NCBI RefSeq assembly: GCF_007859765.1
Contig: NZ_SIHJ01000001.1
Location: 2,929,075-2,993,074 of the forward strand
DNA length: 64,000 bases
DNA from: Posidoniimonas corsicana
Lineage (GTDB): Bacteria; Planctomycetota; Planctomycetia; Pirellulales; Lacipirellulaceae
Direction: 5' to 3'
Under the pieces are notes generated by a model, which made no database searches, had not been told where the DNA came from, and was given only the letters and a program-made list of their open reading frames with translations. The translations under genes and the position numbers were made by a program. Positions 9,777 through 36,285 of this stretch are shown in pieces. Numbering within the stretch: the first letter of the stretch is position 1; every line of letters begins with the position of its first letter.

Positions 9777-9822
9777 CCCGGGCCGCGCCGCGGCCGCAAC
9801 CAAAGATTACCGGAGGAGAAGC

Positions 9823-10170
9823 ATGCTCAAGGGACTTGGCAACATCGCGGGCATCATGAAGCAGGCGCAGGAATTCGGCGGCAAGATGCAGGGCATCCAA
9901 GAACAGCTCAAGCAGGTCAAGGTGACCGGCGCCGCCGGCGGCGGCCTGATCGAGGTGGATGTCAACGGGCAGGGCGAGGCCCTGGCCGTGCGCATCGATG
10001 CGTCGCTCCTCGAGAAGCAAGAGAAGGAGATGATCGAGGACCTGCTGCCCGCCGCCATCAACGACGCCCTCGGCAAGGCCAAGCAGCGTCAGGCCGAGGC
10101 GATGCAGGAGATCACCGGCGGGCTGAACCTGCCCGGGCTCGAGGGCCTGATGCCGGGCGGCAACGCCTAG
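9823..10170 (+). CDS. ybaB: YbaB/EbfC family nucleoid-associated protein
   Basis: 115 aa with a strong ribosome site (GGAGGAGAAG before the ATG). It begins 'MLKGLGNIAGIMKQAQEF' and contains 'ITGAAGGG.I.V..NGQGE'-type core residues (VTGAAGGGLIEVDVNGQGE), typical of the small dimeric DNA-binding YbaB/EbfC proteins; the length is normal. In many bacteria recR follows directly; here the next gene is rpoN, so recR has been separated from the dnaX-ybaB pair. Confidence 0.94.
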   Translation: MLKGLGNIAGIMKQAQEFGGKMQGIQEQLKQVKVTGAAGGGLIEVDVNGQGEALAVRIDASLLEKQEKEMIEDLLPAAINDALGKAKQRQAEAMQEITGGLNLPGLEGLMPGGNA

Positions 10171-10354
10171 CGGGCCCCTGAAGACGCGTCGACCAGCCAG
10201 ACAGGCGGCTCAACCGTTGGTTCCCGTGCCGCCAGACGCCCGCAGCGGGGCAATCGGCTACCGCCACGCGGATACCCGGTCGGAATAAGCTAGTCTTTCT
10301 CAGCCGGGGCGCTGCCCCGTACGGGCTCTTGCGCCCGATTGCGTTGCCGGGCGT

Positions 10355-10384
10355 TTGACCTTCTGGAATTCCCAGGGGTATGCT
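10355..10384 (+). promoter_or_regulatory. Promoter of rpoN
   Basis: TTGACC at 10355-10360 and TATGCT at 10379-10384 are spaced by 18 bp, predicting initiation near 10391 and a leader of about 64 nt. This makes the ATG at 10380, which lies inside the -10 element, unusable and supports the rpoN start at 10455. Confidence 0.6.
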
Positions 10385-10454
10385 ACCTCTATCGTCGCGG
10401 AGCCGCCCAGGAGGGCCCGGCCCGCTGGTCCTTCAAGTCGGAACGGGTAGTCCT

Positions 10455-11966
10455 ATGCGGTTGTCTCTCGGGCAACAAATGCAGCTGGCTCAGAAGCAGG
10501 TGCTTGCACCGCGGATGATCCAGTCGATGGAGATCCTGCAGCTGCCGATCATGGCGCTGCAGGAGCGCATCGAGCAGGAGATGGAGGACAACCCCTGCCT
10601 GGACCTCGTGGAGCCGAGCGAGGACTCCGACAGCAGCTCGCAGACCGAGGAGTACGAGAGCGCCGAGGACGGCGAGCGTGAGCTGGTCGTCAAGGAGGAC
10701 GCCAACAACGAGGACGACTTTGAACGCCTGATCAACATGGCGGACAACCTGCCCGACGACTACGAGGAGCGGAGCCGCCCCTCGCGCGGGCAGATGGAGG
10801 CCGACGCCGACCGCGCCCACGACGCCATGGCCAACATGGTCGCCCGGCCGGAGTCGCTGTCGGACTACCTGAGCCACCAGCTGAGCTGGTTCGAGGCCGA
10901 GGATGACGTCCGCAAGATGGCGGACCGCATCATCTACAGCCTCGACAGCAACGGCTACCTCAAGACGCCGCTCGAGGAGCTGCTGCCCCCGCTGGCCGCC
11001 GACCTCAACGGCGACGCCGACGCCATGCGAGCCAAGCAGCTGCAGGTCGCCGAGCAGGCGCTGGCGCTCGTGCAGCACCTCGACCCGCCGGGCGTTGGCG
11101 CGCGAAGCCTGAAGGAGTGCCTGCAGATGCAGCTCACCCCGGGCATGCCGTACTACGACGAGCTGAGCACGCTGATCGAGTCGCACCTCGAAGACCTCGA
11201 GAACAACCGGCTGCCGCTGATCTCGAAGAAGACGGGCTACTCGATCGAGCTGATCCAGGAGGTCTGGGAAGAGCTACGCAAACTCAAGCCAAAGCCGGGC
11301 GCAGACTTCAGCGAGTCATCCGTGCCCGGCGTCACGCCCGACGTGTTCGTCGAAAAGACCGACGACGGCGGGTACAAGGTGCGATTGGAAGACGGGCAGA
11401 TCCCCTCGCTGTACATCAGCCCGTACTACCGCAACCTGCTCCGCCAGGCCGGCGGCGCCGACGCGAAGACCCGCGAGTACATCAAACGCAAGATCAACGC
11501 CGCGCAGTGGCTGATCGAGTCGATCGAGCAGCGCCGCGGAACGCTCACCCGCGTCGCGCAGGCGATCGTCGACCACCAGACGCGGTTCTTGGACGAGGGC
11601 CCCGAGTTCATCGTCCCGCTGAAGATGCAGCAGATCGCCGACCGCGTCGGCGTTCACGTGACCACCGTCAGCCGTGCGGTTGACGACAAGTGGATCCAGG
11701 CGCCACGCGGCATCTACCCGCTCAAGCGGTTCTTTGTCGGCGGCACCACCGGCGCCGACGGCGAGGACATCGCCTGGGACCGCGTGCGGTTGAAGCTGCA
11801 GGAGATCGTCGACAACGAGGACAAGAAGAAGCCGTTCTCCGACGACGCGCTTGTCGAAGAACTCGCCAAGCACGGCATCACCGTCGCCCGCCGCACGGTC
11901 ACCAAGTACCGCAAGGCGATGGACATCCCGAGCAGCCGGCAACGCCGCGACTGGTCGGACAGCTGA
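10455..11966 (+). CDS. rpoN: RNA polymerase sigma-54 factor
   Basis: 503 aa from ATG 10455, chosen because MRLSLGQQMQLAQKQVLAPRM is the canonical Gln-rich region I that contacts enhancer-binding proteins. An acidic region II (about 50-110) follows, then the core-binding domain (about 130-310), the HTH domain (VGVHVTTVSRAV), and the RpoN box ARRTVTKYRKAM near the C-terminus that reads the -24 element. Length and domain order are normal. It directs transcription from -24/-12 promoters. I did not find a convincing -24/-12 promoter elsewhere in the window, so its local targets are unknown. Confidence 0.96.
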   Translation: MRLSLGQQMQLAQKQVLAPRMIQSMEILQLPIMALQERIEQEMEDNPCLDLVEPSEDSDSSSQTEEYESAEDGERELVVKEDANNEDDFERLINMADNLPDDYEERSRPSRGQMEADADRAHDAMANMVARPESLSDYLSHQLSWFEAEDDVRKMADRIIYSLDSNGYLKTPLEELLPPLAADLNGDADAMRAKQLQVAEQALALVQHLDPPGVGARSLKECLQMQLTPGMPYYDELSTLIESHLEDLENNRLPLISKKTGYSIELIQEVWEELRKLKPKPGADFSESSVPGVTPDVFVEKTDDGGYKVRLEDGQIPSLYISPYYRNLLRQAGGADAKTREYIKRKINAAQWLIESIEQRRGTLTRVAQAIVDHQTRFLDEGPEFIVPLKMQQIADRVGVHVTTVSRAVDDKWIQAPRGIYPLKRFFVGGTTGADGEDIAWDRVRLKLQEIVDNEDKKKPFSDDALVEELAKHGITVARRTVTKYRKAMDIPSSRQRRDWSDS

Positions 11967-11979
11967 CCCAACACAACGG

Positions 11980-12222
11980 CTACTTGTCGCCCGCGGGATT
12001 GATCCTGCCGGCGATCCTGGGCGGCTCGGGCTTCACCTCCGTGCGCAGTGAGCCATCACGGGGCAGGCCGAACACACGGGTCACCATCCAGGCCACGGCA
12101 AGCCCAAATAGGTTGGCCGCCACTACCAAGCCGGCGGTCAGCAGGTCGACCCAGGCGAGCAGCGCAAGGCCGGCTGCGAGACCGCCCCACGCGAATGCCG
12201 ACATCGTCAATGCGTGGCACAA
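11980..12222 (-). CDS. Small membrane protein, unknown
   Basis: 80 aa. Two hydrophobic segments (about residues 8-28 and 30-48, the second rich in Val/Ala/Leu) precede a polar tail ending NPAGDK. It lies 32 bp downstream of the SHD1-thioredoxin gene on the same strand, so the two are probably co-transcribed. No family is recognised. Start at 12222, or the Met 7 codons later (MSAFAWGG). The hydrophobic pattern and the tight spacing argue that it is real; it fills most of the gap after rpoN. Confidence 0.5.
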   Translation of the reverse strand: MCHALTMSAFAWGGLAAGLALLAWVDLLTAGLVVAANLFGLAVAWMVTRVFGLPRDGSLRTEVKPEPPRIAGRINPAGDK

Positions 12223-12254
12223 TGTTCTCCTGGATCGCCCTTCGAGCTTTCGTG

Positions 12255-13394
12255 CTACAGGCGAGATGCCACCCGGTCGCTCGGCTCGCCAAGCAGCTTC
12301 TTCAGCTCGACTCCCAGACGTTCGCCCCGGCAGTGAACAGCCGCGACCTTGCCATCACGCCCAATGAGCACAAACGCCGGTATTCCACTAATCCCCAGCC
12401 GAGCCGCCATTGATTCGCGGGCGGCTGGGTGCCTGTCGGCCACCACAGTCCACGGGGGCTTTTCTTCAATCACAAACTGCTTGAGGGCGTTCATGTCTCG
12501 GTCGACACTGATCGCCACGACCTCGAAGCCCGCGTCGTGGTGCTTCGCGTAGTTCTGCCTGATATTGGGCATCTCCGCTCGGCAGGGACCACACCAGGTC
12601 GCCCAGAAATCGACGAGGACTACCTTGCCATCAAACTGCTCCCAGTCGAGGGGGCGCCCTTGCAGTGTTACGCCTTGAACGGACAGTTCTTTGCCAATCA
12701 GGGCGAGCAACGGATCTTGCTTTCCGTCGCTGGGCGCCGCTTCGAAGTCGATGGTTTTCTCGCCGTCGGGAAACTCAGCGCTTATTGCAAAGACCCGCCA
12801 CGCCTCCGCGTCCCTGCGAAAATGCAGCTTTGTCTTATAGAACGCGCCTCCAGCCCGGACTCGGACAGGGACAACGCCGACCTCGCCTTTGATCTCCGCC
12901 TGCCCTGCACGGATGGCGCGGGTGTGGTCGTCCGGCTTCGGCAGGCCCTGAAGAGGAGACTTGCCGTCTGCAACCAGCTTGCGTGCGTCCCCAGTCAGGA
13001 GCCCTGTCGCTCTAGCCCTTCCTTCTGTACGAAGGTCAGCGAAGAACTCCTCGGCGGCGCCTCGGATCTCGCCCGCGGAGGCCGAGTCCTCTCGTCCGCG
13101 CGCACGTGGCCGACGGTCGGGGATACGTTCCGGCGGATGGGAATTGTGCTCCTTGAGAAACCGCAGGTCTGCCTGGCTCAACTTCGATGTCGGCACGGCA
13201 ACCTCCGAGCCGTCGGGCTTGCGAAGCGTCACAGTGCCGCCTTCAACGGCGACTAACTCCGCTTCGATCTTGAATCTACCCGTAACGTCAGTCCAAACTC
13301 GTGGGTCCGCACCGACTGAGACGGTTGCCGCGAAACCACACCCGATCCAGAGAATAAGGCCGAGTCGATTCATCCTGGCCAGCCCCATAGTCAT
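12255..13394 (-). CDS. Secreted SHD1-domain / TlpA-like thioredoxin
   Basis: 379 aa. After a signal peptide (…VSVGA|DPR) comes an SHD1 (SLA1 homology) domain at about 30-85, with the planctomycete 'WTD.TG.F.IEAELV..EGG.V.L.K.DG' pattern, then a spacer domain. The C-terminal thioredoxin fold carries the redox motif WCGPC at 267-271 and the cis-Pro region GISGIPAF. It is expected to act as a periplasmic thiol-disulfide reductase of the TlpA/ResA group. Starts at 13394, 13388 or 13373 are possible; the last (MNRLGLIL) gives the most compact signal peptide. The fusion with SHD1 is common in Planctomycetes, but its role is unknown. Confidence 0.9.
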   Translation of the reverse strand: MTMGLARMNRLGLILWIGCGFAATVSVGADPRVWTDVTGRFKIEAELVAVEGGTVTLRKPDGSEVAVPTSKLSQADLRFLKEHNSHPPERIPDRRPRARGREDSASAGEIRGAAEEFFADLRTEGRARATGLLTGDARKLVADGKSPLQGLPKPDDHTRAIRAGQAEIKGEVGVVPVRVRAGGAFYKTKLHFRRDAEAWRVFAISAEFPDGEKTIDFEAAPSDGKQDPLLALIGKELSVQGVTLQGRPLDWEQFDGKVVLVDFWATWCGPCRAEMPNIRQNYAKHHDAGFEVVAISVDRDMNALKQFVIEEKPPWTVVADRHPAARESMAARLGISGIPAFVLIGRDGKVAAVHCRGERLGVELKKLLGEPSDRVASRL

Positions 13395-13445
13395 AAGAGA
13401 AACAGTGGCAGACGCATCTCCCTAGGCAGCTGAGGGGCGAATCGC

Positions 13446-14096
13446 TCAGGCGCCTTGGGTGATCATGTGGAGGCCACGACGCCGGCGCTCCTTGCGTCGC
13501 GCGTCGTCGATCTTGTCGGCCACTGCGCGGACGTCGTCGATGCCCGGCAGGCTCAGCTCTGGCGACGTCTTGTCGCCGGAGATCACGATGATCGTTCCGA
13601 CGCGGAAAGCCCGCTCGACCGGGCCCTGCTTGAAGGTTACGTCGTCGATGTCAATTAGCTCGATGCGGTCGATGGTCCGCCAAAGGATGCCTGACTCGTG
13701 GATCAACCGCTGCGTAGTGAGTGTGTAGTGGACGCTATACCGGCGGTAGGCGTACCAACCGATCAGGATCGCCCAGACGAGCACCGCGGCGCCAACCGCG
13801 ATCACCACGGCCCCGGTCATGACCCCCACCACCACCGCTAGCACTGTCAGCAGCGCGGCGGCCATCCACTGGCCAACCATCGCCTTGCTGGAGTAGGCGC
13901 CGTGCCAGATCTGCTCCTCCTGCTCTTCCTCGTCATGGTCGGTGTGCCCGACCTGGTGACGGAACGACTCGTGCGGCGTCGGACGGCCGCCTGCGGCCGG
14001 CTCCTGGGCGGGGGCATCTTCCTGCAGATTGGCGCCACACTTGTGGCAGAAGGCGGCCTCCTCTTCGCACTCGGCCTGGCATTTTGGGCACTGCAT
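13446..14096 (-). CDS. Zinc-ribbon and PH-domain membrane protein
   Basis: 216 aa. An N-terminal zinc ribbon (CPKCQAEC… CHKCG, residues 3-20) is followed by an acidic/His linker, two close hydrophobic helices at about 75-118, and a bacterial PH domain of the YdbT/bPH2 type ('YTLTTQRLIHESGILWRTIDRIELIDIDDV'-like pattern) from 120 to 200. It is probably an inner-membrane protein with cytoplasmic zinc-ribbon and PH parts. The ATG follows GGGAGTCTAAGCGGG. It is transcribed away from nrdR. The function of the family is unknown. Confidence 0.82.
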   Translation of the reverse strand: MQCPKCQAECEEEAAFCHKCGANLQEDAPAQEPAAGGRPTPHESFRHQVGHTDHDEEEQEEQIWHGAYSSKAMVGQWMAAALLTVLAVVVGVMTGAVVIAVGAAVLVWAILIGWYAYRRYSVHYTLTTQRLIHESGILWRTIDRIELIDIDDVTFKQGPVERAFRVGTIIVISGDKTSPELSLPGIDDVRAVADKIDDARRKERRRRGLHMITQGA

Positions 14097-14143
14097 CCCG
14101 CTTAGACTCCCTGTCGATTGGGGTTGGATCGGCGTCGGCCGGC

Positions 14144-14149
14144 ATTATA
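14144..14149 (-). promoter_or_regulatory. Consensus -10 element upstream of the PH-domain gene
   Basis: On the minus strand the sequence reads TATAAT, predicting initiation near 14137 and a leader of about 40 nt. No good -35 match accompanies it. Confidence 0.4.
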
Positions 14150-14294
14150 GGGCGCCGGACTTGCCGACTGCCACCTACCGCGGCGGCAGGCGGGTATTCG
14201 CCGGCGGTCTATCGATCTTGCCCCGCCGCCGGAGCGGCCACTAATCGCCGCTCGACAGGCTGTACGACGCATCGCCGAAGTGTAAGATATCTCC

Positions 14295-14871: not shown

Positions 14872-14944
14872 GGGGCGGTAGCTCAGTTGGGAGAGCGCTG
14901 CGTTCGCAATGCAGAGGTCGGGAGTTCGAACCTCCTCCGCTCCA
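14872..14944 (+). tRNA. tRNA-Ala (anticodon CGC)
   Basis: A 73-nt cloverleaf: acceptor GGGGCGG pairs with CCGCTCC and contains the G3-U70 wobble that identifies alanine tRNAs; the D-arm has AGCTCAGTTGGGAGAGC; the anticodon loop TTCGCAA gives CGC (reads GCG); the T-loop is GTTCGAA. The 3' CCA is not encoded. It occupies the interval between nrdR and the anti-sigma gene; the remainder of that interval (14945-15090) shows nothing recognisable. Confidence 0.96.
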
Positions 14945-15090
14945 CTTCTTTCGACGCCGGGTCGCGCGGCGTCTCTTCGACGGCTGGCAGGACTGCGTTG
15001 AGTGGCCGGGCGCTGTCCGCGAGTCCAGAGGCCCGACCTAACGGCTCTCGGACTGGAGCCTGCTGTCGGTCGCGTCCTGATCCCGTGGCG

Positions 15091-16698
15091 TTAGTTTCGG
15101 AACCACTGCGCTCGAACGCTTACCCCTTGCCAGTCAACGTTGGCAGGGACCTCTGAGATGTCCCGGAAACCGAGCGTTGCCGCGCCTTCCGACTCAAAGA
15201 GCCTCTCGGGCGTCCAATCGGTCCACACCGAGCGGGCCGGGCCGCCGTCCTGGCTCGCCTCGGCCGCCAGGTAGGCACCGTTCAGGGTGTAGCGACGCGT
15301 CTCGCCGCTGTGGTTACGCACCACATAAACTCGGTGCATCGTTTCCTCCGATAACTCGTCGACGGTGCGGGCGTCGGCCCTAAGGCGCCACAAAGCCGTA
15401 CGAGAGTTCGCCTCCGAGATGTCGATGGCGGTGGGGGTGGTGGCCGCCACCGAGACTACCAGCACTAGCACCTCTCCTGGTCGGACATCGAAGTCATAAC
15501 CAGATGGTCGGTCTTCCGAGAGCGGCGCGTGTTCCTGCGGCTCGGGCGAGTAGACCACTGAAGGACGGCCGCGGCCCGATCGCTCCTCCGGACTAGCGAT
15601 ACGAATCACTGCACGTGTGTCGTTGTAGTCGCGGTCGACGCCCAGCCGCTCCTGGTCCGCCTCCTTAGAGACCACGTACCGCGAATCGTCCCAGCCGATG
15701 ACGAGAACGCCATCGGACGCGTACTGGACGCGGTAGTCGCTCTGCGACCACGTGTTGCCCGACTCGCGCTCGGGGTCGTTGTACGAACCAGTCAAGAGGA
15801 AGTACCTGGTCGCACCGCTAGCGTTAACGTTTTGAAAGTTGCCCAGGCTTGTTGCAAGACGTTTCACGACCTGCCCGTCCGAGACATTGTTGAATGACAC
15901 CGCACCACCCGACACCTCGGCACGGCTGTCCAACTCGATTACGCTCAGAGAGTTCTGCCCGGCGGCATTTGCGTCAACATACATGTCCAGCGAGCACCCC
16001 GGGGGCAGTTCCAGCACATACCCCCGCTCCTGCTCCCCGTAGCCACGGTCCATCCATGCGGTGCCGCTGCATAGCGTCAAATCTGGCGCTCCGTTCAGGT
16101 GCGTCTGCGGGAGCTGCAGGCTCAGCAACGACGCCGTTCGCGTGAGTTGACTAACCAGGCGCAGGGCGTCCGCGTCGCGGACCACCAGCATCTCTTCCCC
16201 GGCGGAAGCCCTGGGCGTCCCGACCGCGCCTCGCGCCGTGCTTGCAACCGCTCGCTCCCGGCCCGAGTCGCGCGAGCCGACCCAGAGATAACCGCCTGCA
16301 GCGATTGCAAGAAGAATTGAAGCCGCCGCAAGCAGGAATCGGGGAGTCGCGTGCATCGGTTGTGGGAGTCCGGCGGTGCTGTCCGCAGGAACCAACGAGC
16401 CAGGGGTTCTCCCCGACCAGCCGCTCAGCAGCGCCGGCAGGCCGCGTTCCCTCTCGCCGGCGTTGCCGCCTACGCCCGCGTCTATCCCCTCCTCACCATG
16501 CTCGGCGGCCTGTCGGACCTGCTCAACCATCACCAGGTGCACCTGCACGTAATCCCGGTACGCGGCGCGGGCCTCTGCGTCGGTCGCGAGACGCTGGTTT
16601 AGCGTTTCTGCCTCCGACTCAGAAAGCACGCCGTTGCAGAGCATGCCGAAAAGACGCATCAGTTCCCGCTGCTCGCTACTGTTTTGGTGATCAGCCAT
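15091..16698 (-). CDS. FecR-like anti-sigma factor
   Basis: 535 aa. The cytoplasmic N-terminus (1-60, 'ELMRLFGMLCNGVLSESE…L.LATDAEARAAYRDYVQVH') is the zinc-less anti-sigma/FecR N-domain pattern found beside gvs1-type ECF sigma factors. One membrane helix follows at 121-140 (FLLAAASILLAIAAGGYLWV), then a large external region of beta-rich sequence. It begins 60 bp after the sigma gene on the same strand, so the pair is an operon and the protein is expected to hold the sigma factor at the membrane until an envelope signal arrives. The anti-sigma gene is intact, whereas its sigma partner has an internal stop. Confidence 0.75.
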   Translation of the reverse strand: MADHQNSSEQRELMRLFGMLCNGVLSESEAETLNQRLATDAEARAAYRDYVQVHLVMVEQVRQAAEHGEEGIDAGVGGNAGERERGLPALLSGWSGRTPGSLVPADSTAGLPQPMHATPRFLLAAASILLAIAAGGYLWVGSRDSGRERAVASTARGAVGTPRASAGEEMLVVRDADALRLVSQLTRTASLLSLQLPQTHLNGAPDLTLCSGTAWMDRGYGEQERGYVLELPPGCSLDMYVDANAAGQNSLSVIELDSRAEVSGGAVSFNNVSDGQVVKRLATSLGNFQNVNASGATRYFLLTGSYNDPERESGNTWSQSDYRVQYASDGVLVIGWDDSRYVVSKEADQERLGVDRDYNDTRAVIRIASPEERSGRGRPSVVYSPEPQEHAPLSEDRPSGYDFDVRPGEVLVLVVSVAATTPTAIDISEANSRTALWRLRADARTVDELSEETMHRVYVVRNHSGETRRYTLNGAYLAAEASQDGGPARSVWTDWTPERLFESEGAATLGFRDISEVPANVDWQGVSVRAQWFRN

Positions 16699-16758
16699 CG
16701 AAAGTCGTTGTGGGGCGTTCTGCGGTTCTCAATGCGGCGGTGGGACGCGGCAGCAAGT

Positions 16759-17274
16759 TCAACAAGCCCGGCTCTTTCTGTTGACGCACTCCAGAAGCAA
16801 CCGACGCACCGAGTGCAAGCGGTTGTAGATCGTCTGTGTCGCCTGGCCCAGGCGTTTCGCCACCTCCGCCGCTTGGGCGCCGTTCCGGTAGACCGCGACA
16901 ATGAGGTCGTGGTCGCGTTGCTAGAGGTTTGCCAAGCACTCCTTGATCAGCTCGACCCGTCGGAGTTCCCGTGCGGGAGAAGCCATCTGCTCCTCCGCGA
17001 GGCGCTGAACGACCTCGTCGCCCAGCACCAGGTTGCGCCGGCGCGCGGTTCGACGGTAGTTCTGCACGGTCTTGTACGCCACGCCGCAGGCCCAGGGGAA
17101 GAACTCGCGGCTCCGGTCGAACTCTGGGAACTTCTTCCAGAGCGTAATGCTTGCCTGCTGAAAGATGTCTTCGGCGTCGGCCTCGCTCGGTACGAGCGTA
17201 AAGATGTAGCGGTAGATCCGGTGCCGCTCTCCGCTGAAACACCGGACAAACGCCTCTTCACTATGACTTTCCAT
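16759..17274 (-). pseudogene. ECF sigma factor (Rhodopirellula/Verrucomicrobium type) with in-frame amber codon
   Basis: The ATG at 17274 has a good ribosome site (GTGGAGTGCCG). Region 2 is clear ('EADAEDIFQQASITLWKKF', 'FFPWACGVAYKTVQNYRR'), matching the gvs1 family of sigma-70 factors. At codon 118 the frame meets TAG (16923-16921), directly after KECLANL. The same frame then stays open for 53 codons and encodes an intact region 4 (QRDHDLIVAVYRN, AAEVAKRLGQATQTIYNRL) before TGA at 16761-16759. Full length would be 171 codons, normal for the family. One CAG-to-TAG change explains the break. Either a recent pseudogene, a readthrough-dependent gene, or a base error; without readthrough the 117-aa product lacks the -35-binding domain. 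Confidence 0.8.
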
Positions 17275-17290
17275 CGGCACTCCACTTTGA

Positions 17291-17308
17291 AGACGCGCCG
17301 GCGCGTCT
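17291..17308. promoter_or_regulatory. 18-bp perfect palindrome before the sigma gene
   Basis: AGACGCGCCGGCGCGTCT is a perfect self-complementary 18-mer lying 17-34 bp upstream of the sigma start codon. It could be an operator or a hairpin in the leader that affects translation. No known binding motif is recognised. Confidence 0.45.
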
Positions 17309-17325
17309 AACTGACCGCTGCTCAA

Positions 17326-17873
17326 CCTTGTATTGTACGGCGGCGTAGCACCTTACCTAAAAAAATGTGATGGACTCGGTCAAGAAGGCCACGTCGGGCG
17401 TTCTCCTGCCGGAAGGCCGTGAGAATATAGCGATTCTTGAATTCTTGAACCAATTCCCAAGTAGGTCGCCACCCCGAGGTGACAAGTATTTGTCAGCGGG
17501 CGAGCGGTCGCCCGAAGCCATCTTCTCTGGCGCCGGCCTGGACGCACCTCGATCGCAACCCTGGCGTTTCCCCGCGTGGGGACGTCTCGCGATCTGCATG
17601 AGATCGCCGCGGGAGCCTCGGAAAGTGCAGGTTAGTCCATCGAACAAGGGGCAGAGTCCGGTTGGCTGACAAGCGTCCGAGGTCTCCCCGCGCGGTCTTG
17701 ATGTCCGCGAATGTTGACGTACGGCGTACGGGGGCAACTCAATAATGTAAGCAATCTCGGAGACTAAGCCGAGGCAACCCTGACGTCGCTTCGCAACCAT
17801 TGGAACGCCGAACGCCCCGCACAGGGCGTCGGCCAACAGAACTTACACCGCAGGTATTGGAGACTAGCCCGAG
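17326..17873. other. Hairpin-rich gene-free region between sigma gene and PEP-CTERM gene
   Basis: No plausible coding sequence. It contains a tandem 8-bp repeat (ATTCTTGA twice, 17433-17448) in a locally AT-rich stretch, three consecutive short hairpins (CACC/GGTG near 17470-17481; GACAA-GTAT-TTGTC, 17481-17494; CGGGCGA-GCGG-TCGCCCG, 17497-17514), a 7-bp stem GCGATCT-GCATG-AGATCGC (17589-17607), a doubled CGTACGG near 17719-17732, and ACGCCC-CGCACA-GGGCGT (17812-17829). Probably the regulatory region and long leader of the surface-protein genes; a promoter cannot be fixed confidently. Confidence 0.5.
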
Positions 17874-19253
17874 ATGATCTGCAGCTCTCAGATGCTCACT
17901 GTCCTCGCTTGTAGCGCTTCGTTGCTCGCCGGGCCCGCGTTAGGCCAGGCAGTGTGGCAGGGCGGCGTCAGCAGCGACGCGGCCGACGCACTCAATTGGA
18001 CCACAGGCTCCTTGCCCAATGGTGCAACCGATGTCGAGCTGCGGACGGGCGAAAACGCCGACCTCAACCTCGCCAGTGACGCCACTTGGAACACCCTCTT
18101 CTTCAACAGTGCCGGCGAGACCACGATCAACGGCGCGGGGACGCTAACGCTAAACTCCTCCGGCAACAACAACGCCATCCTCTCCGCAGGCGGGCCACTC
18201 ACCTCGACCATCAACACGCACCTTAGCACACCGACCAACATCCAGACCAACGGTCAGCACAGCTTGACCTTCAACGGGAACGTCGCCGCAAACAAGATCG
18301 AGGCCTTCGGAGGCACAACTGCCACCTTCAATGGCGACGTCACCGTATCGGATCAGTTCATCACCGTGGGGGGCGACTCGAGCGTCGTGTTCAACGGCAA
18401 CTACCACTGGGCAAGCGACGGCCTGCTGCAGACCGAGCTGGGAATCAACGGGCAGGGCGCGTCGGACGTAACCTTCACGTCGTTCACATCAGACTTCGCC
18501 GTGGGCGTAAACATCGTCAACATCTACGATGACGCAACCGTCCACATCGCCTCCGACTACGTATTCCAAGGCGCGACCGGGATCTGGTCGCGGCGGGGAA
18601 ACAACCACCTGGACCTGGCCGGCAACGACGAGGCCTTCGACTTCATCGGCAGCGACATGCCGGGCGGCGGCAACAGCCCCGACCCGAACATCCCCGTGAT
18701 CATGGGGATCGACTTCGGCGCCACACAAGGCGCCAACTCGCTCGTCTGGGCGACATCGAACTTCATGGGCGGCTCCTACCCCGTGACGAACTTCGAGGTT
18801 GGCGTCGACACGCTGGAGTTCGGCATCAACGGTCCGCAGTTCTTCACCGACGACCAACTCGGTCAGATCACCATCAATGGAGTTCCCTACGCCGCGTCCG
18901 ACCCAGGCGATGGCAGCGCCTACTGGACACGCGACTCGGCGAGCTTCCCGTTCTACCCGGCCTTCTTCAATCTTCCGACTGTCGACCTGCCCGGTGACTA
19001 CAACGACGACGGCCAGGTTGATGCCGCGGACTACACCGTCTGGCGGGACGCCCTGGGCACGGACGCCGCTCTCCCCAACGACCTCACTCCCGGGGCAGTC
19101 ACGCCCGTGGACTACGACGTCTGGTTGCAAAACTACGGGGCCTCGGGTGGCGTGGCGGTCGCCGCGGCCCCGGAGCCTGCGACGTTCTGTCTGGCGTGCG
19201 CAGCGTGCCTAGCCGTCGCCGGACGGCGGCTCAGCGCCCGGCGCCCCTGCTGA
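17874..19253 (+). CDS. PEP-CTERM surface protein with dockerin-like repeat (paralog 1)
   Basis: 459 aa. Signal peptide (…LAGPALG|QAVW), then a repetitive beta-rich region (N-rich 'NG.G.L.LN', 'VFNGNYHW') like autotransporter-adhesin or passenger-type helices, then a dockerin-like segment GDYNDDGQVDAADYTVWRD with Ca-binding DxNxDGxxD spacing at about 375-395 and a second, weaker copy (TPVDYDVWLQNYG). The C-terminus has the exosortase signal: APEPATF, hydrophobic helix, RRLSARR. Exosortase is expected to cut at PEP and anchor it at the surface. It is a paralog of the next gene (shared NW.TG…P.GA, VFNGNYH, DVTFT). The ATG at 17874 has only a poor ribosome site. Confidence 0.88.
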   Translation: MICSSQMLTVLACSASLLAGPALGQAVWQGGVSSDAADALNWTTGSLPNGATDVELRTGENADLNLASDATWNTLFFNSAGETTINGAGTLTLNSSGNNNAILSAGGPLTSTINTHLSTPTNIQTNGQHSLTFNGNVAANKIEAFGGTTATFNGDVTVSDQFITVGGDSSVVFNGNYHWASDGLLQTELGINGQGASDVTFTSFTSDFAVGVNIVNIYDDATVHIASDYVFQGATGIWSRRGNNHLDLAGNDEAFDFIGSDMPGGGNSPDPNIPVIMGIDFGATQGANSLVWATSNFMGGSYPVTNFEVGVDTLEFGINGPQFFTDDQLGQITINGVPYAASDPGDGSAYWTRDSASFPFYPAFFNLPTVDLPGDYNDDGQVDAADYTVWRDALGTDAALPNDLTPGAVTPVDYDVWLQNYGASGGVAVAAAPEPATFCLACAACLAVAGRRLSARRPC

Positions 19254-19272
19254 CCTCATGCTTCGCAGGGTA

Positions 19273-19286
19273 TCCGTCCGGACGGA
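19273..19286. repeat. 14-bp palindrome between the PEP-CTERM paralogs
   Basis: TCCGTCCGGACGGA is perfectly self-complementary and sits in the 108-bp gap between the two paralogous genes. A possible operator or RNA-processing hairpin; there is no U-tract, so it is not a classical terminator. Confidence 0.35.
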
Positions 19287-19361
19287 CGACTTCCCGCTCC
19301 TTGACTCGACCATTACTGCGACGAACCGCTACTTGCAACTCTGATCTACAGGAGTGAATGA

Positions 19362-20510
19362 ATGCCCCACCGCATATGTTCCCTATTAAGCGGGCTGCTG
19401 ATCTGCTCACTTCCAGTTCTGGCGGTCGCCGAGGACCGACTCTGGACAGGCGCCGTCAGCAACGATGTCACCAACGCCGGCAACTGGGACCTTGGACTTC
19501 CGACCGGCGCCGACCGGGCCAACTTCCGGGCCGACGGCTCGCCAGGCGCGCCGGATCTTGGAGCGAACAACGTGACCTGGGACCAGCTTAGGTTCAACAA
19601 CATCGGACCCACTCACATCCAGGGAGCGGGCGTCATCAACCTAAACGCCGGGTCGAACCCGGCAGTGTATTCCGAGGGCGGCGCGGTCGGTCCTTCGGTG
19701 GTTGACCCCGATATCGTGACCGCTGGCGAGATCCAGAGCAACGGAGACCATGACCTTGTTTTTAACGGGTCGGTGACCGCTGGCGGGATCCAGGCATTCT
19801 CGTCCACCTCGACCTACAACGGGGACGTGACGGTAACCGCCGAATTCATCAGCGCCAACTCGACCATCATCTTCAACGGGAACTACCACCGGAGCACCGC
19901 GGTCGCTGGGATCGGCATCAACAACTCCGGCTCCGACGTAACCTTCACGACCCTATCGTCCGACGACCCTCTGCACCCAAACGGAGCCAACATCCTCAAC
20001 CTGTACGGCAACCACACGATCCGTAACGGCCAGAACAACACCTTCAATGACTCACGACCGTGGGGGCGCAACGGGACCACAAACACGTACAGCCTGAACG
20101 GCTTTGACGACACGGTGCCGTTCATCGGGACGGACAACGGCAGCACGATGGTGATCGACTTCGGAACCCCGGGCGTCGCCAACTCGTTGATCTGGCAAGA
20201 GGGCGGCTTCAATGGAACCGGTGCGGCCTACCTTGTGGAAGGCTTTGATGTTGGACTCGACAGCCTGCGGCTGGGCGTCTCGGCCCCGTTCGCAGATACG
20301 CAGCTGACCCAGATCACGGTGAACGGCATTGCCTACTCGGCCGACGACCCGATGACCGGGGCCGCCTACTGGAGCCTGGACGGGAACAACTTCGTACAAG
20401 TCTTGCAGGGTGGCGTGCCTGAGCCGTCGGCGTCCACGCTGCTCCTTTTAGCGCTTGCGGGATCGACTCGACGGAGAAGCCCGCGAGGCGGCCACCGAAG
20501 GAGTTGCTAG
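19362..20510 (+). CDS. PEP-CTERM surface protein (paralog 2)
   Basis: 382 aa, with a good ribosome site (CAGGAGTGAATGA). Signal peptide (…PVLAVA|EDR) and the same beta-rich plan as its upstream paralog, sharing the landmarks NW.LG.PTGAD, 'HIQGAGVINLNAGSNPAVYS', 'STIIFNGNYH' and 'SDVTFTTLSSD'. The exosortase signal VPEPSASTLLLLALAG is followed by an Arg-rich tail. Unlike paralog 1 it has no dockerin-like repeat, so the two have diverged mainly at the C-terminal module. Probably secreted and anchored by the exosortase encoded at 27.7 kb. Confidence 0.87.
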   Translation: MPHRICSLLSGLLICSLPVLAVAEDRLWTGAVSNDVTNAGNWDLGLPTGADRANFRADGSPGAPDLGANNVTWDQLRFNNIGPTHIQGAGVINLNAGSNPAVYSEGGAVGPSVVDPDIVTAGEIQSNGDHDLVFNGSVTAGGIQAFSSTSTYNGDVTVTAEFISANSTIIFNGNYHRSTAVAGIGINNSGSDVTFTTLSSDDPLHPNGANILNLYGNHTIRNGQNNTFNDSRPWGRNGTTNTYSLNGFDDTVPFIGTDNGSTMVIDFGTPGVANSLIWQEGGFNGTGAAYLVEGFDVGLDSLRLGVSAPFADTQLTQITVNGIAYSADDPMTGAAYWSLDGNNFVQVLQGGVPEPSASTLLLLALAGSTRRRSPRGGHRRSC

Positions 20511-20614
20511 ATCGACTTCAACACGCGACCTACCACCAGAGCGTGCTGGGACGCCACCCTGCCCCAGCACGCTGTCGCGACGCACATGACACACAAAGTA
20601 CAGAGACTCACGCT

Positions 20615-22081
20615 ATGGGGCGACAGGCGGCGATCGCAGTGTTGCAGACACAGTTGGCGCGCACAATGTGCCTGGCCATGGCTGCGACTGCTGCCGCGAA
20701 ATGCGGCGCGGCGCCGCAGGTTGGCGTGTACTACTACCCGTGGTACGGCCCCGGCTCTGGAGGCCACACCTTCGATGATACGTTACGTGCCCATCTTACG
20801 CCGGATCCGCAGCTGCCTGCCGCTGGCCTCAACGGCCGCGACGCTAGCGTGGTCGAGCGACACATCGATCAGAGCCACACGGGAAACATTTCGATGTGGT
20901 CGTTGAGCTGGTGGGGCCCGGGCGGGTTTGAAGACATTACGATCCGTAACCACATCCTCACCCACCCCCGCGCGCCCGAGCTGCAGTACACCATTCACTA
21001 CGAGTCGGCAGGCCGGATGGCCCCGATTGACTCCCCGGATTACTCCAACCTACTGCCTGACTTTCGGCACCTGGCCAACCACATTTGGAGCGATCCCAAC
21101 TACATGCGGATAGACGGCCGGCCGGTCGTTTTCATGTACCTCACTCGCGAGTTCTTCAAGACGCCCGAGTCCTGGTCATTGCTTTCTGACACACGTGAAG
21201 CAATTGCCCAGGAGTATGGCTACGCCCCCTACATCATCGGTGATGACTTCTTCGGCTCATCACCGGTTGACACCGCGCGAGCCGCTCAGTTTGACGCGAT
21301 TACCAACTTCGATGTCTACGGAACCGTGTTTGGCGGTGGATTTGCTAACCAATCCCGCGTGAACGCCCTGGCCAGCATCTACGCCAATGCGAAGGCGGCC
21401 GCGGCGGCCGCCGGTGTGGGATTCGTTCCTACCGCATCCCCGGGCTTTAACGACACCGCCGTGCGTCCTGGCCCCGCCCCGGCTGCCAGGTACCTTGCAG
21501 AGCTGGGCCCTAATGCTAACGGCTCTACATTCACCACTGTGCTAGAGGACGCGGTCTTGCCAAACACCGATCCCACGGTGGGCGACCTGATCATGATCAA
21601 CTCGTTCAATGAGTGGCACGAGGACACGCAGATCGAGGCCAGCGTTCTAGCCGCCCTCACCAACAGCGACGACTCGTCGACGGGCGCCGCCTTCACCAGG
21701 GGGCGATACGACGAGGGTTACGGGAGCCTGTACCTGGACCTCCTCAGGACCGCAACCGTCCTGGCGGGAGACTACAACTTCGACGGCGCGGTCGACCCAG
21801 CCGACTACAGCGTCTGGCGGGCGGACTACAACCACACCGGGATCGACGTGGCGGCCGATGGTAATCGAGACGGCACAGTTGACGCCGCGGACTATGTTGT
21901 CTGGAGGGACGCGCTCGCGGCGGTCGGCGATGCAAGAAACAGCCCAATAACGGTCCCAGAGCCTGGAGCGCGTCTGCTAGCCTCGGCCTTGTGCTTAACC
22001 CTGGGTATCACTCCATCCCGTCGATTCCCTGAGCGGCTGGGTTTTCTCGACGCTCTCATCAAGTCACGTCGCAGACCATGA
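20615..22081 (+). CDS. GH99-like glycosidase with dockerin-like repeats and PEP-CTERM
   Basis: 488 aa from ATG 20615 (MGRQAAIAV). After the signal peptide the catalytic domain opens with GVYYYPWYG, continues with WWGPGGFED and IDGRPVVFMY, and closes with the acidic motif SFNEWHEDTQIE, the pattern of GH99/GH71-like endo-mannosidase folds. It would act on alpha-mannan-like glycans; the substrate is inferred. Two Ca-binding dockerin-like repeats (GDYNFDGAVDPADY; DGNRDGTVDAADY) precede VPEPGARLLASAL, the exosortase signal. The tail after the hydrophobic helix is unusually long (about 22 residues). The stop overlaps an ATG at 22078 in another frame, but the next gene probably starts at 22138. Confidence 0.8.
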   Translation: MGRQAAIAVLQTQLARTMCLAMAATAAAKCGAAPQVGVYYYPWYGPGSGGHTFDDTLRAHLTPDPQLPAAGLNGRDASVVERHIDQSHTGNISMWSLSWWGPGGFEDITIRNHILTHPRAPELQYTIHYESAGRMAPIDSPDYSNLLPDFRHLANHIWSDPNYMRIDGRPVVFMYLTREFFKTPESWSLLSDTREAIAQEYGYAPYIIGDDFFGSSPVDTARAAQFDAITNFDVYGTVFGGGFANQSRVNALASIYANAKAAAAAAGVGFVPTASPGFNDTAVRPGPAPAARYLAELGPNANGSTFTTVLEDAVLPNTDPTVGDLIMINSFNEWHEDTQIEASVLAALTNSDDSSTGAAFTRGRYDEGYGSLYLDLLRTATVLAGDYNFDGAVDPADYSVWRADYNHTGIDVAADGNRDGTVDAADYVVWRDALAAVGDARNSPITVPEPGARLLASALCLTLGITPSRRFPERLGFLDALIKSRRRP

Positions 22082-22137
22082 CGACACGCAAGCCACCAAG
22101 CCCCTTCCTATGCTCTCCAAGCCGACGGATCACCGGC

Positions 22138-22626
22138 ATGAGTCAGCGCCAACGGCTGACCACGGTGCGCGTCCGACTCGCACTAGCCGCCATCGCATGT
22201 CCACTTGCGCTGACCTGTGGCGGATGTAACGATAGCCCTGTCTCGTCCGACCAGTCGCAGCTGCAAGCGGCGATGAATTTGCTGGGCCTGCAGTACGGCG
22301 GATACGTATCCGAGCACCAGGGCGCCGGCCCCCCCAACAAGGCGTCGCTCCGCTCCTTCCTGCAAGCGCGGCTACCGCTGCTTCAGGACTTCGGGGTAGC
22401 GGGGGTCGATGACCTTCTGCCAAACGGACGCGACGGTGCGCCAATCCAAGTGATCTATGGGAAACCACTCCAAGTGGCCGATCGTCCGCAGTACGTCTGG
22501 GTTGCGTACGAGGCGTCCGCTCCAACCGGCTCGAGGCTCGCATGCGACAGCCGCGGAGGCGTCTACGAGCTCTCGGAGGAGGACTTTGCGAACCAGATCG
22601 GAGAGCGACTACTACCCTCCGGCTAG
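22138..22626 (+). CDS. Probable lipoprotein, unknown function
   Basis: 162 aa from ATG 22138, with an N-terminal export signal ending in a possible lipobox (LTCGGC). An in-frame ATG at 22078 would add 20 residues and bury the signal. The mature part begins 'NDSPVSSDQSQLQAAMNLLGLQYGGYVSEHQG' in segments and ends in a 'VWVAYEA…GGVYELSEEDF' block typical of small planctomycete lipoproteins encoded beside DUF1559 pilin-like genes. No function is known. The gap to the DUF1559 start (93 bp) holds a CCCGCGC/GCGCGGG inverted repeat (about 22636-22669). Confidence 0.65.
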   Translation: MSQRQRLTTVRVRLALAAIACPLALTCGGCNDSPVSSDQSQLQAAMNLLGLQYGGYVSEHQGAGPPNKASLRSFLQARLPLLQDFGVAGVDDLLPNGRDGAPIQVIYGKPLQVADRPQYVWVAYEASAPTGSRLACDSRGGVYELSEEDFANQIGERLLPSG

Positions 22627-22719
22627 GTGTCTCCACCCGCGCGGACGCAAGCCTCACAGACGTGCGCGGGCCGCGGGGCCGATCAGCAGAACTCTACCCT
22701 TCTAGAAACAGTTCTTCTC

Positions 22720-23895
22720 ATGCGAACAGTATCCACTAAGCGACCCAAAGAGTCGGTCCGTTGCGCGCATTCAGATCTGCGTGGTTTCACGCTCGTGGAA
22801 TTGCTGGTAGTAATCGCGATCATCGGTGTTCTGATCGCGTTGCTGCTTCCAGCGGTCCAATCGGCCCGCGAATCGGCCCGACGCACCCAGTGCAAGAATC
22901 AGCTCAAGCAGATTGGCTTAGCAATGCAGAACCACGTCAGCTCGCTGAGCGTGTTTCCGACTGGAGGCGACGGCTACAACCCCGACATCCGCAACTACCT
23001 CAGCGGCACGGACACCAGCAACCCTGCCAACTCGAGCGGAACCCCCAACGGCCCGAACAAGCAGGGACTCGGCTGGGGTTACCAAATCCTGCCCTACCTG
23101 GAGGAGAACTCCCTCAAGGACATCACTTCGATGTCGCGGCTGGCGTCAACAAAGGTGGCGCTCTACTTCTGCCCCTCAAGACGCTCGACTGCCATCTCAT
23201 CGGCCTTCAGCCCCGCCGCCGGTGGAATCCAGATCCCGTACCTGCTCACCGACTACGCCGCCGCGTACCCGGTAACCTACCTCAGCCCAACCCGATCGGC
23301 CGCGCGGCAGATCACGCCGGTGCCGTGGAGCGACCCGTCTATCAATGTCGTCTACTCCAGGATCTACAACGCGTTTATGTACGGCCGCGTTGAGGGAGGA
23401 GTGAGCACGCCCGTCCGGCCAGCGGATAACTACATCTGCGACGGAGTCATCGTCCGCACGCCCTGGCGGTGGCGGCAGCAGACGTTCGCCCGCGGCGTGA
23501 GCCGCGCCGTGAAGCCGGCGAAGATCGTTGACGGGCTCAGCAAGACCCTGCTGGTGTCTGAGAAGCTGGTCCGCACCGACCTCTACGAAGGCGGCAGTTG
23601 GTCCGACGACCTCGGATGGGCCGACGGCTGGGACCCCGACCAGATCCGGACGACCGGCCTCCAGCCGCTGCGCGACGACGACCCCTTCTGCTACGGCGCT
23701 CGTCAGAACTGGTGCGGAGGCGTGCCGCCGGGGCACAACGACGTGTTCGCCTTCGGGTCCGCCCACCCGGGAGGGATCAACGCCGTGCTGTGCGATGGCT
23801 CGGTCCGGCAGATCAACTACGACGTGGATGTCGTGCTATTCAATGTCCTGGGTGGACGCAATGATGCTGGCGTCACTGCGGGCCTCAACCTTTGA
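22720..23895 (+). CDS. DUF1559 prepilin-like protein
   Basis: 391 aa from ATG 22720. Type IV/II prepilin N-terminus: [25 protein letters not shown], with the G|F cleavage site and the E5 needed for assembly. Next is the DUF1559 body ('[19 protein letters not shown]') and the C-terminal H-X9-DG signature ([12 protein letters not shown]). Planctomycetes encode many such proteins, processed by prepilin peptidase and probably assembled or retained at the cell envelope. Full length. It is the intact counterpart of the fragment immediately downstream. No Shine-Dalgarno is visible. Confidence 0.93.
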
Positions 23896-23924
23896 GAACT
23901 GGACAGCAACAAATGGCTGTGTAG

Positions 23925-24206
23925 ATGCATAACGCAGCGTCATCCTACGCAACACCTGACGGCGGCGCATCGGCCGCCAGGACAGGCGACGCACGCCGTC
24001 GGCGTACGACCGGGCTCACCATGGTCGAGCTGCTGGTTGTGGTCGCAATCATCGGCATGCCAGTTGCGATGCTCCCCGCTGCACATGCGGCGCGAGAGTC
24101 CGCCCGACGAACCCAGTGCGCGAACAACCTGAAGCAATCCGGCTGCGGGATTCTCAACCTTGAGAACACATTCGGCGCCTTCCCTAGCGGTGACATCGCA
24201 CCCTTG
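23925..24206 (+). pseudogene. DUF1559 fragment (head only), fused in frame to an oxidoreductase remnant
   Basis: The N-terminal third of a second DUF1559 gene: [28 protein letters not shown] is followed by [14 protein letters not shown] and '[14 protein letters not shown]'. The prepilin helix is already damaged ([11 protein letters not shown] replaced by [11 protein letters not shown]) and everything after GAFPSG is missing. The frame runs directly into a Gfo/Idh/MocA fragment, so the predicted 161-aa product is a chimera of two decayed genes, not a functional protein. It starts only 30 bp after the intact DUF1559 gene. Confidence 0.8.
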
Positions 24207-24555
24207 CCCGAGATCGACGACTACCGATCGGTCCTCGACCGCCAGGACATCGACGTGGTGAGCATCGTCACCCCGGACCACTGGCATGTGAGAATCGCGG
24301 TCGACGTGTTCGAGGCGGGCAAGCACGTCTTCTGTGGGAGAACTTCTGCCGAACGCTCCGGGAGGGCGGGCCCCCGGTATCCGATGCCTTGTGCCACCTA
24401 CATACCATGAACACCTGCCACTTGGCGGCAATCGCGGCAAAGCTCGGTCGGAGCATCCGAGGAACCCTGCCGCTGAACGCATCGAGTGCGATACAGTCGC
24501 CGAAGGGCTCGCCGCCCGGACGCCCAGGAGCGACTACGAGATCATCCGCGTGTAG
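24207..24555 (+). pseudogene. Gfo/Idh/MocA oxidoreductase remnant with internal deletion and frameshift
   Basis: The first block reads [20 protein letters not shown] and [19 protein letters not shown], the end of a Rossmann NAD-binding domain. About 24334 the frame changes and the text resumes as [18 protein letters not shown] and NTCHLAAIAAKLGRSIR, the C-terminal hallmark of planctomycete Gfo/Idh/MocA proteins ('ENF..C.R…PVSD…CHL.NIA..LGR'). Near 24465 another shift gives AERIECDTVAEGLAARTPRSDYEI. Roughly 200 residues between the two blocks are missing. A pseudogene beyond reasonable doubt. Confidence 0.82.
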
Positions 24556-24634
24556 GAGATCCCGGAGATCGCGTCCATCACCAAACTAGACCGGAACTCA
24601 ACCCGCCTGACCAACCAGAGCGACTGCCTGACGG

Positions 24635-25024
24635 CTAACCTTCCGCCGGCAGCGCGTGCTCGCGGAGTTCTTCCAAGGACGCGAACTCCAGGGCGGTCAT
24701 GTGGGTCGCCTCCAAACGCACCGGCGGCGCGACGCCAGCGTCATAGGCCTCCTTCCACCGCGATGCGCACAGGCACCAGCGGTCGCCCGGCTGGACACCG
24801 GGGAACATATACTCGGGAATCGGGGTCGAGAGGTCGTTGCCCACGCGCCGGCTGAAGGCGAGAAACTCATCGGTCGCCTGGATGCAGACGACGTGTAGCC
24901 CGGCGTCGCTCAGCCCTGTCCGGCAGAAGCCGTCACGGTAGAATCCGGTCATCGGGTCGGTGCAGCAGCTCTGCAGCTCGCCGCCCAGCACATTCTTGCC
25001 ACTGTTTGGCGGGGGTGCGCTCAT
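24635..25024 (-). CDS. DUF2237 family protein
   Basis: 129 aa from ATG 25024, with GAGG seven bases upstream; a GTG at 25033 is an alternative. Conserved DUF2237 landmarks: KNVLGGELQSCCTDP, TGFYRDGFCRTG, DEFLAFSRRVGNDLSTP, PGDRWCLCASRW and LEATH. The family is a small cytosolic, Cys-containing protein of unknown function found widely in bacteria. Monocistronic: the upstream side is closed by the terminator of the Wzc-like gene. Confidence 0.9.
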   Translation of the reverse strand: MSAPPPNSGKNVLGGELQSCCTDPMTGFYRDGFCRTGLSDAGLHVVCIQATDEFLAFSRRVGNDLSTPIPEYMFPGVQPGDRWCLCASRWKEAYDAGVAPPVRLEATHMTALEFASLEELREHALPAEG

Positions 25025-32531: not shown

Positions 32532-33320
32532 CTAGAGGGTGCGAAGTGGGTCCCGCTCGCGGATGCTGGGCCACACCGCTAGACCGGCCGCCTCTTTCGC
32601 CAGCCACTCGGCAAGCCGTTCCACCGCGAACCGCTCGCTCGCGTAGTGGCCGGGCAAGACTAGAGCCAGCCCCGCCGCCTGCGCCGCCAGGCAGTTGTGA
32701 AAAGTCGCCTCGCCGGTGATCAAGACATCTGCGCCCGCCGTTGCCGCTGACGCGATGAAGGACCCGCCGCTGCCGCAGGCCACCGCCGCGCTCGCGATGC
32801 TCTTGCCCACAGGTCCGACCACGCGGACGGATTCGGCGGCGGTGAACTCCCTGATGCGAGCGGCTACCTCCTCAAGTGTAGCTGCGGTCGGCAGGAGTCC
32901 GATCCGCCCGGCGCCTACAGCCGGCTCATCCTCGGTCGGGTTGAGCGGCGCCGCCGACCGCAGCTTCAGGGCGTTCGCTAGTGCGGCGTTGATGCCACTA
33001 GCCGCCGAGTCGAACGCCGTGTGAGGGCTGTAGACCGCCACGCCCGCGCGGGCGAGTCTCCACAGCATGCCGCCCTCGACGGTGTCGGTCGTGATCTTCG
33101 CCAGCGGCCGGAAGGGCAGGGGGTGGTGCGTCACCACCAAGTCGGCGCGCTCGTCGACCGCCTCGGCCGCCGAGTCGGGCGTCAGCGTCAGGCAGGTCAT
33201 GACCCGGCCAACCTCCATCGAGCGGTCGCCCATCAGCAACCCGGTGTTGTCCCAGTCCTCCGCAAGGCAAGGCGGTGCGAAGGCGTCCAGCAGGTCGCAC
33301 AGTGCGCTTAGTTTGGCCAT
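32532..33320 (-). CDS. Nif3-like dinuclear metal center protein
   Basis: 262 aa from ATG 33320 (MAKLSALCDLLDAFAPP), chosen by fit to the family N-terminus; ATG 33332 is possible. Conserved metal-site motifs: AEDWDNTGLL, TLTPDSAAEAV, DLVVTHHPLPFRP (two metal-binding His), YSPHTAFD and GEATFHNCLAAQ… GHYASE near the end. The family is annotated as GTP cyclohydrolase 1 type 2/Nif3, but its true reaction is unsettled. It follows the 923-aa secreted protein gene with 58 bp between and may be co-transcribed. Confidence 0.92.
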   Translation of the reverse strand: MAKLSALCDLLDAFAPPCLAEDWDNTGLLMGDRSMEVGRVMTCLTLTPDSAAEAVDERADLVVTHHPLPFRPLAKITTDTVEGGMLWRLARAGVAVYSPHTAFDSAASGINAALANALKLRSAAPLNPTEDEPAVGAGRIGLLPTAATLEEVAARIREFTAAESVRVVGPVGKSIASAAVACGSGGSFIASAATAGADVLITGEATFHNCLAAQAAGLALVLPGHYASERFAVERLAEWLAKEAAGLAVWPSIRERDPLRTL

Positions 33321-33378
33321 GGCCAACAGCATATCGCCGCCCGGCATTCCGACACAACCGCACCGACGGCCACGCCAA

Positions 33379-36150: not shown

Positions 36151-36285
36151 CTTGCTTCGGGCGGGAAAGGGGGCGGGGCGCGAGTGGGGCGGCGCTTGCG
36201 GCGCAGCCCCGCGAAAATGTACCGTAGCCCAGACGCAACGCTCGATGTTTACGAAACCAAACCGCCAAACCCAACCGCTACGACC

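What the first reader, a model, noticed from the sequence alone, without database searches (positions are those of the whole stretch)
16759..17274. Amber codon splits an otherwise intact ECF sigma gene beside an intact anti-sigma gene
TAG at 16923-16921 occurs directly after region 2, yet the same frame continues for 53 sense codons with a clean region 4. One CAG-to-TAG change is enough. The stop is followed by CAA (UAG-CAR is the first part of a known viral readthrough context; the rest of that context is not matched). If real, the cell makes a 117-aa sigma fragment lacking the -35-binding domain, or full-length protein only by readthrough, while the membrane anti-sigma is kept.
Basis: partly seen in the sequence, partly recalled or inferred. 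Interest (0 to 1): 0.62.

Follow-up and report, generated by a model that had tools for sequence, protein, structure and literature searches.

The report
Sigma-factor gene broken by one stop
In one planctomycete strain, one of about sixteen similar stress-type sigma-factor genes has a single stop codon inside its DNA-binding half; the likeliest reading is an ordinary, recent gene inactivation in a partly decaying, strain-specific stretch of DNA, not a new way of reading stop codons.

Summary
An in-frame TAG at 16923-16921 (minus strand) ends a TIGR02989-type ECF sigma gene after 117 codons. The next 53 codons encode the rest of region 4 and match the family model on their own (E=1.3e-8). The open frame itself means little (29% of the window's stop-to-stop runs are that long); homology carries the case.

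Corrections: the stop lies about 9 residues inside the region-4 match, 38 residues after region 2. The column is variable (Q in 1 of 29 homologues), so the assumed original codon is unsupported.

Readthrough is unlikely: no CUA-anticodon tRNA was found, TAG is the window's commonest stop (24 of 43 predicted genes), and another predicted gene ends in the same TAGCAA. All 143 family matches in four relatives are uninterrupted.

The tail keeps 13 of 14 conserved positions, so the change is recent or an error. The gene and its intact anti-sigma-like neighbour lie in a 9.7-kb block beside tRNA-Ala that the congener lacks and that ends in other gene remnants. Fifteen other full-scoring paralogues are uninterrupted.

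Best reading: a recent nonsense mutation in a redundant, accessory ECF sigma. A sequence error cannot be excluded without reads. Low interest.

The parts
16921..17274 (-). 117-codon frame: ECF sigma region 2 plus linker and the first residues of region 4, closed by TAG
   Evidence: Pfam Sigma70_r2 at residues 17-80; DNA read directly
16921..16923 (-). in-frame TAG, codon 118
16762..16920 (-). 53 sense codons continuing region 4 in the same frame
   Evidence: TIGR02989 positions 114-158, E=1.3e-8; 13 of 14 conserved positions kept
16759..16761 (-). natural stop of the sigma frame
15091..16698 (-). intact FecR-like membrane protein, probable anti-sigma partner, 535 aa
   Evidence: length like homologues; same position downstream of the sigma in most homologous loci examined; no Pfam or NCBIfam hit
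14872..14945 (+). tRNA-Ala (CGC) at the edge of the accessory block
14951..24645 (.). 9.7-kb block present here and absent from the congener G001
   Evidence: blastn against G001
17874..19253 (+). divergent gene: exported protein with dockerin-like repeat and PEP-CTERM-like end
   Evidence: sequence read directly; no Pfam hit
19362..20510 (+). second PEP-CTERM-like exported protein
   Evidence: sequence read directly
20504..22081 (+). glycoside hydrolase family 99 protein
   Evidence: Pfam PF16317 E=4.2e-20
22627..23895 (+). DUF1559 pseudopilin-like protein
   Evidence: Pfam PF07596 E=5.5e-37
23925..24410 (+). gene remnant: DUF1559 start fused to a Gfo/Idh/MocA fragment
   Evidence: Pfam PF07596 profile 2-56 of 268 and PF01408 in one 161-aa frame

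Best explanation
A formerly complete ECF sigma gene of the Rhodopirellula/Verrucomicrobium family (TIGR02989), paired with a FecR-like membrane anti-sigma protein, has been inactivated by a single recent nonsense change in this strain. Translation stops at codon 118, leaving region 2 and the linker without the -35-binding helices of region 4, so the product should not start transcription at its own promoters. The anti-sigma-like partner is kept because it is a separate intact gene and has had little time to decay. The pair sits in a 9.7-kb accessory block beside tRNA-Ala that the congener lacks and that already holds another broken gene; the genome has fifteen other uninterrupted paralogues over the family cut-off, so loss is probably tolerated. 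Shown: the stop, the intact homologous tail, the intact neighbour, the block's absence in the congener, the other remnant, the paralogues. Inferred: loss of function, recency, tolerance.
For: One stop only, with the tail still a good region 4. All other homologues listed, all 143 TIGR02989 matches in four relatives and all 43 other matches in this genome are free of internal stops, so the stop is no family feature. Tail conservation (13 of 14 positions) implies a young lesion: under neutral drift the chance of no new stop and all 13 kept is 0.19 at 0.05 and 0.03 at 0.10 substitutions per site. The surrounding block is absent from the congener and ends in a DUF1559/Gfo-Idh-MocA remnant. No CUA tRNA found. 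TAG is the normal, commonest terminator in the window.
Against: Reads, other strains, transcripts and proteins were not available, so a sequence error or a mutation fixed in culture cannot be told from a wild allele. The tail shows no decay beyond the stop, which equally fits an error or a maintained function.
Confidence: 0.72

Rival explanations
1. The TAG is a base-call or consensus error in a draft genome; the gene is intact in the organism.
For: Only one base would be involved; the tail is as conserved as in intact homologues; the assembly is a 13-contig draft; no other homologue has a stop.
Against: Single-base substitution errors are rare in finished draft assemblies (general knowledge; the sequencing method of this genome was not found); a second, unmistakable gene remnant lies in the same block.
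Confidence: 0.17
2. The 117-aa region-2 fragment is itself functional, for example as a decoy for the anti-sigma or as half of a split sigma that borrows region 4 from elsewhere.
For: Two-subunit sigmas exist (SigO-RsoA, PMC8103513); the anti-sigma-like gene is intact.
Against: No relative is truncated here. The later in-frame start codons lie at residues 138-159, inside region 4, so no complete region-4 protein can be made from this gene. The tail would be expected to decay, yet is conserved.
Confidence: 0.07
3. Programmed or suppressor-driven readthrough of UAG gives the full-length sigma.
For: Tail conserved; stop followed by CAA.
Against: No CUA anticodon among the tRNAs found; TAG ends 24 of 43 predicted genes in the window, mostly followed by C, and TAGCAA also ends the predicted gene 32532-33416; no relative has a stop at this column.
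Confidence: 0.04

Closest known systems
TIGR02989, RNA polymerase sigma-70 factor, Rhodopirellula/Verrucomicrobium family (ECF type), with downstream FecR-like membrane protein
   Same: Read-through protein passes the curated cut-off (142.5 against 124.55 bits); the same sigma/FecR-like gene order is found at most of the homologous loci examined
   Different: The frame is closed by a TAG in region 4; its relatives are uninterrupted
Bacterial pseudogenes by single nonsense mutation
   Same: One stop, otherwise intact frame, accessory locus with another gene remnant nearby
   Different: No intact allele from the same species was available for comparison
SigO-RsoA two-subunit sigma of Bacillus subtilis (PMC8103513)
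   Same: Region 2 and region 4 end up in separate frames
   Different: Here the break is inside region 4 and no start codon allows a complete region-4 protein

Membership tests
TIGR02989 ECF sigma factors | curated whole-protein score | tested here: met
   142.5 bits against cut-off 124.55 for the frame read through the stop
TIGR02989 ECF sigma factors | one uninterrupted product with regions 2 and 4 | tested here: not met
   TAG at codon 118; the 117-aa product alone matches only Sigma70_r2 in Pfam
Pseudogene by nonsense mutation | frame-breaking stop with homology continuing beyond it | tested here: met
   tail matches TIGR02989, E=1.3e-8
Pseudogene by nonsense mutation | intact in the nearest relatives that have the gene | tested here: met
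   nearest homologues (54% and 51% identical) are uninterrupted; the congener has no orthologue
Pseudogene by nonsense mutation | loss of function | not testable with these tools
   needs expression or genetics
Stop-codon readthrough or amber recoding | a tRNA able to read UAG | tested here: not met
   no CUA anticodon among the tRNAs detected; near-cognate misreading was not tested
Stop-codon readthrough or amber recoding | stop conserved at the same place in relatives | tested here: not met
   a sense codon in all 29 aligned homologues
Two-subunit sigma (SigO-RsoA-like) | separately translated, complete region 4 | tested here: not met
   the stop is 9 residues into the region-4 match and the later start codons cut into it

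The most novel reading that the evidence does not exclude
The strain keeps the truncated region-2 protein as a functional partner or decoy of the FecR-like anti-sigma, or obtains small amounts of full-length sigma by basal readthrough, giving a permanently damped signalling pair.
Probability: 0.06. Interest if true: 0.5.

Novelty: new member of a known kind. Interest (0 to 1): 0.14.

Why it matters
If confirmed by reads, it is a snapshot of the loss of one sigma/anti-sigma pair in a phylum with very many ECF sigmas, caught before the partner or the tail decayed. That has modest value for understanding turnover of accessory regulatory cassettes. It also warns annotators that this 117-aa frame is not a complete sigma factor. 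If readthrough or a functional fragment were shown it would matter more, but nothing here points that way.

Tried and rejected
Amber suppression: scanned the own genome for tRNAs with RF00005 (75 matches), read the anticodons with ARAGORN and two uncalled candidates by eye (Glu CTC, Asn GTT); none was CUA. Special stop context: TAGCAA also ends another predicted gene and TAG-C is the usual terminator context. Family-wide feature: none of 29 aligned homologues has the stop. Split sigma with a separate region-4 protein: start codons lie too far in. Relaxed constraint on the tail: not seen; the post-stop minus pre-stop mean identity is -0.023, within the range of intact homologues (-0.12 to +0.012). 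Attachment-site repeats bounding the block: none of 18 nt or more flanked it, so no mechanism of insertion was established. PLSDB plasmids: no DNA match. Closer orthologues in GTDB genome contigs: best only 38%. The sequencing method of the source genome was not found in the papers held. A first attempt to hand in this report was malformed.

Full report
Where it lies. The window belongs to a genome of 6,765,537 bases in 13 contigs with GC 0.668 in the window. Size, contig number, GC and the large tRNA count match Posidoniimonas corsicana KOR34 in Table 2 of PMC7717034 (6.77 Mb, 13 scaffolds, 66.7%, 91 tRNAs). The identification is by these numbers, not by accession. The one other genome of the genus held (G001, about 6.3 Mb in about 30 contigs) is compatible with P. 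polymericola Pla123a (6.26 Mb, 27) in the same table.

Observation. On the minus strand an ATG at 17274 opens a frame that meets TAG at 16923-16921 after 117 codons and then runs 53 more sense codons to the stop at 16761-16759. Read through, the 171-aa protein passes the curated cut-off of TIGR02989 (142.5 against 124.55 bits), and the tail alone matches positions 114-158 at E=1.3e-8. GC by codon position is alike on both sides. Length of open frame is no evidence by itself, because 29% of the window's stop-to-stop runs are at least 53 codons; homology and codon pattern are.

Corrections. Region 2 ends at residue 80 and the region-4 match begins at 109, so the stop (codon 118) is inside region 4. 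In an alignment with 29 uninterrupted homologues this column is variable (T, P, K, N, R, S, E, D and, once, Q). The original codon therefore cannot be inferred.

Is the stop a feature of the family? No. Every other match listed, all 43 other TIGR02989-profile matches of the own genome and all 143 in four relatives are without internal stops. The nearest homologues (G024, 54%; G356, 51%) are intact and followed by a FecR-like protein whose N-terminus resembles the window's.

Is it read through? No CUA-anticodon tRNA was found. TAG is the commonest terminator in the window (24 of 43 predicted genes, usually followed by C), and the predicted gene at 32532-33416 ends with TAGCAA, after which only five sense codons follow. 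Basal misreading is always possible but nothing marks this stop as special.

Can the halves work as a split sigma? The in-frame starts after the stop are at residues 138, 153, 156 and 159, all inside region 4, so no complete region-4 protein can be made. This is unlike SigO-RsoA, whose domains are on separate proteins (PMC8103513).

How old is it? The tail keeps 13 of 14 positions conserved in at least 75% of homologues, against 32 of 41 before the stop. In a substitution-only simulation, keeping those 13 and gaining no stop has probability 0.51, 0.19 and 0.03 at 0.02, 0.05 and 0.10 substitutions per site. The lesion is therefore recent, or it is an error, or the tail is still selected. The data do not separate these; prior expectation favours the first.

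Neighbourhood. The anti-sigma-like gene (15091-16698, 535 aa, one hydrophobic segment near residue 122) is complete relative to homologues. Its anti-sigma role is inferred from gene order and architecture; no Pfam or NCBIfam model matched it. Its C-terminal part recurs next to an intact sigma in the same genome (G000:C1:3435207 and following). On the other strand run genes for PEP-CTERM-like exported proteins, a GH99 protein, a lipoprotein-like protein and a DUF1559 protein. The nearest homologue's neighbourhood also has divergent PEP-CTERM-like and DUF1559-like genes (read by eye). The whole block 14951-24645 is absent from the congener: there the tRNA-Ala is followed after about 122 nt by the counterpart of 24646. 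Insertion here or deletion there is not settled, and no flanking repeat was found. The far end of the block holds a 161-aa frame that joins the beginning of a DUF1559 gene to a Gfo/Idh/MocA fragment, followed by what looks by eye like further broken MocA-like sequence. The block thus contains at least one other dead gene.

Conclusion. The simplest account is a recent nonsense mutation in a dispensable, strain-specific ECF sigma gene with its partner still intact (0.72). A sequence error remains possible (0.17). Readthrough (0.04) and a functional fragment (0.07) are not excluded but have no positive support.

Noticed in passing
L093 (G000:C1:2000000-2018000) positions 9755-14287: An array of 33 ARAGORN tRNA genes (plus two found only by RF00005) in about 4.5 kb, apart from a normal dispersed tRNA set; many are low-scoring variants. 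It explains much of the unusually high tRNA number of this genome. No suppressor anticodon. Origin (mobile element or phage) not examined.
   Followed up: partly
window 23925-24560: Decayed gene remnants: DUF1559 start fused to a Gfo/Idh/MocA fragment, with what looks like further out-of-frame MocA-like sequence.
   Followed up: partly
window 14951-24645: 9.7-kb block beside tRNA-Ala(CGC) missing from the congener; no flanking repeat found and no integrase seen among its larger frames.
   Followed up: partly
window 20504-22081: GH99-family protein with dockerin-like repeat and PEP-type C-terminus inside the accessory block.
   Followed up: no
window 36637-36727: ARAGORN reports a 91-nt tRNA-Asp (gtc) inside the predicted protein gene 36184-37062; probably a false call.
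   Followed up: no
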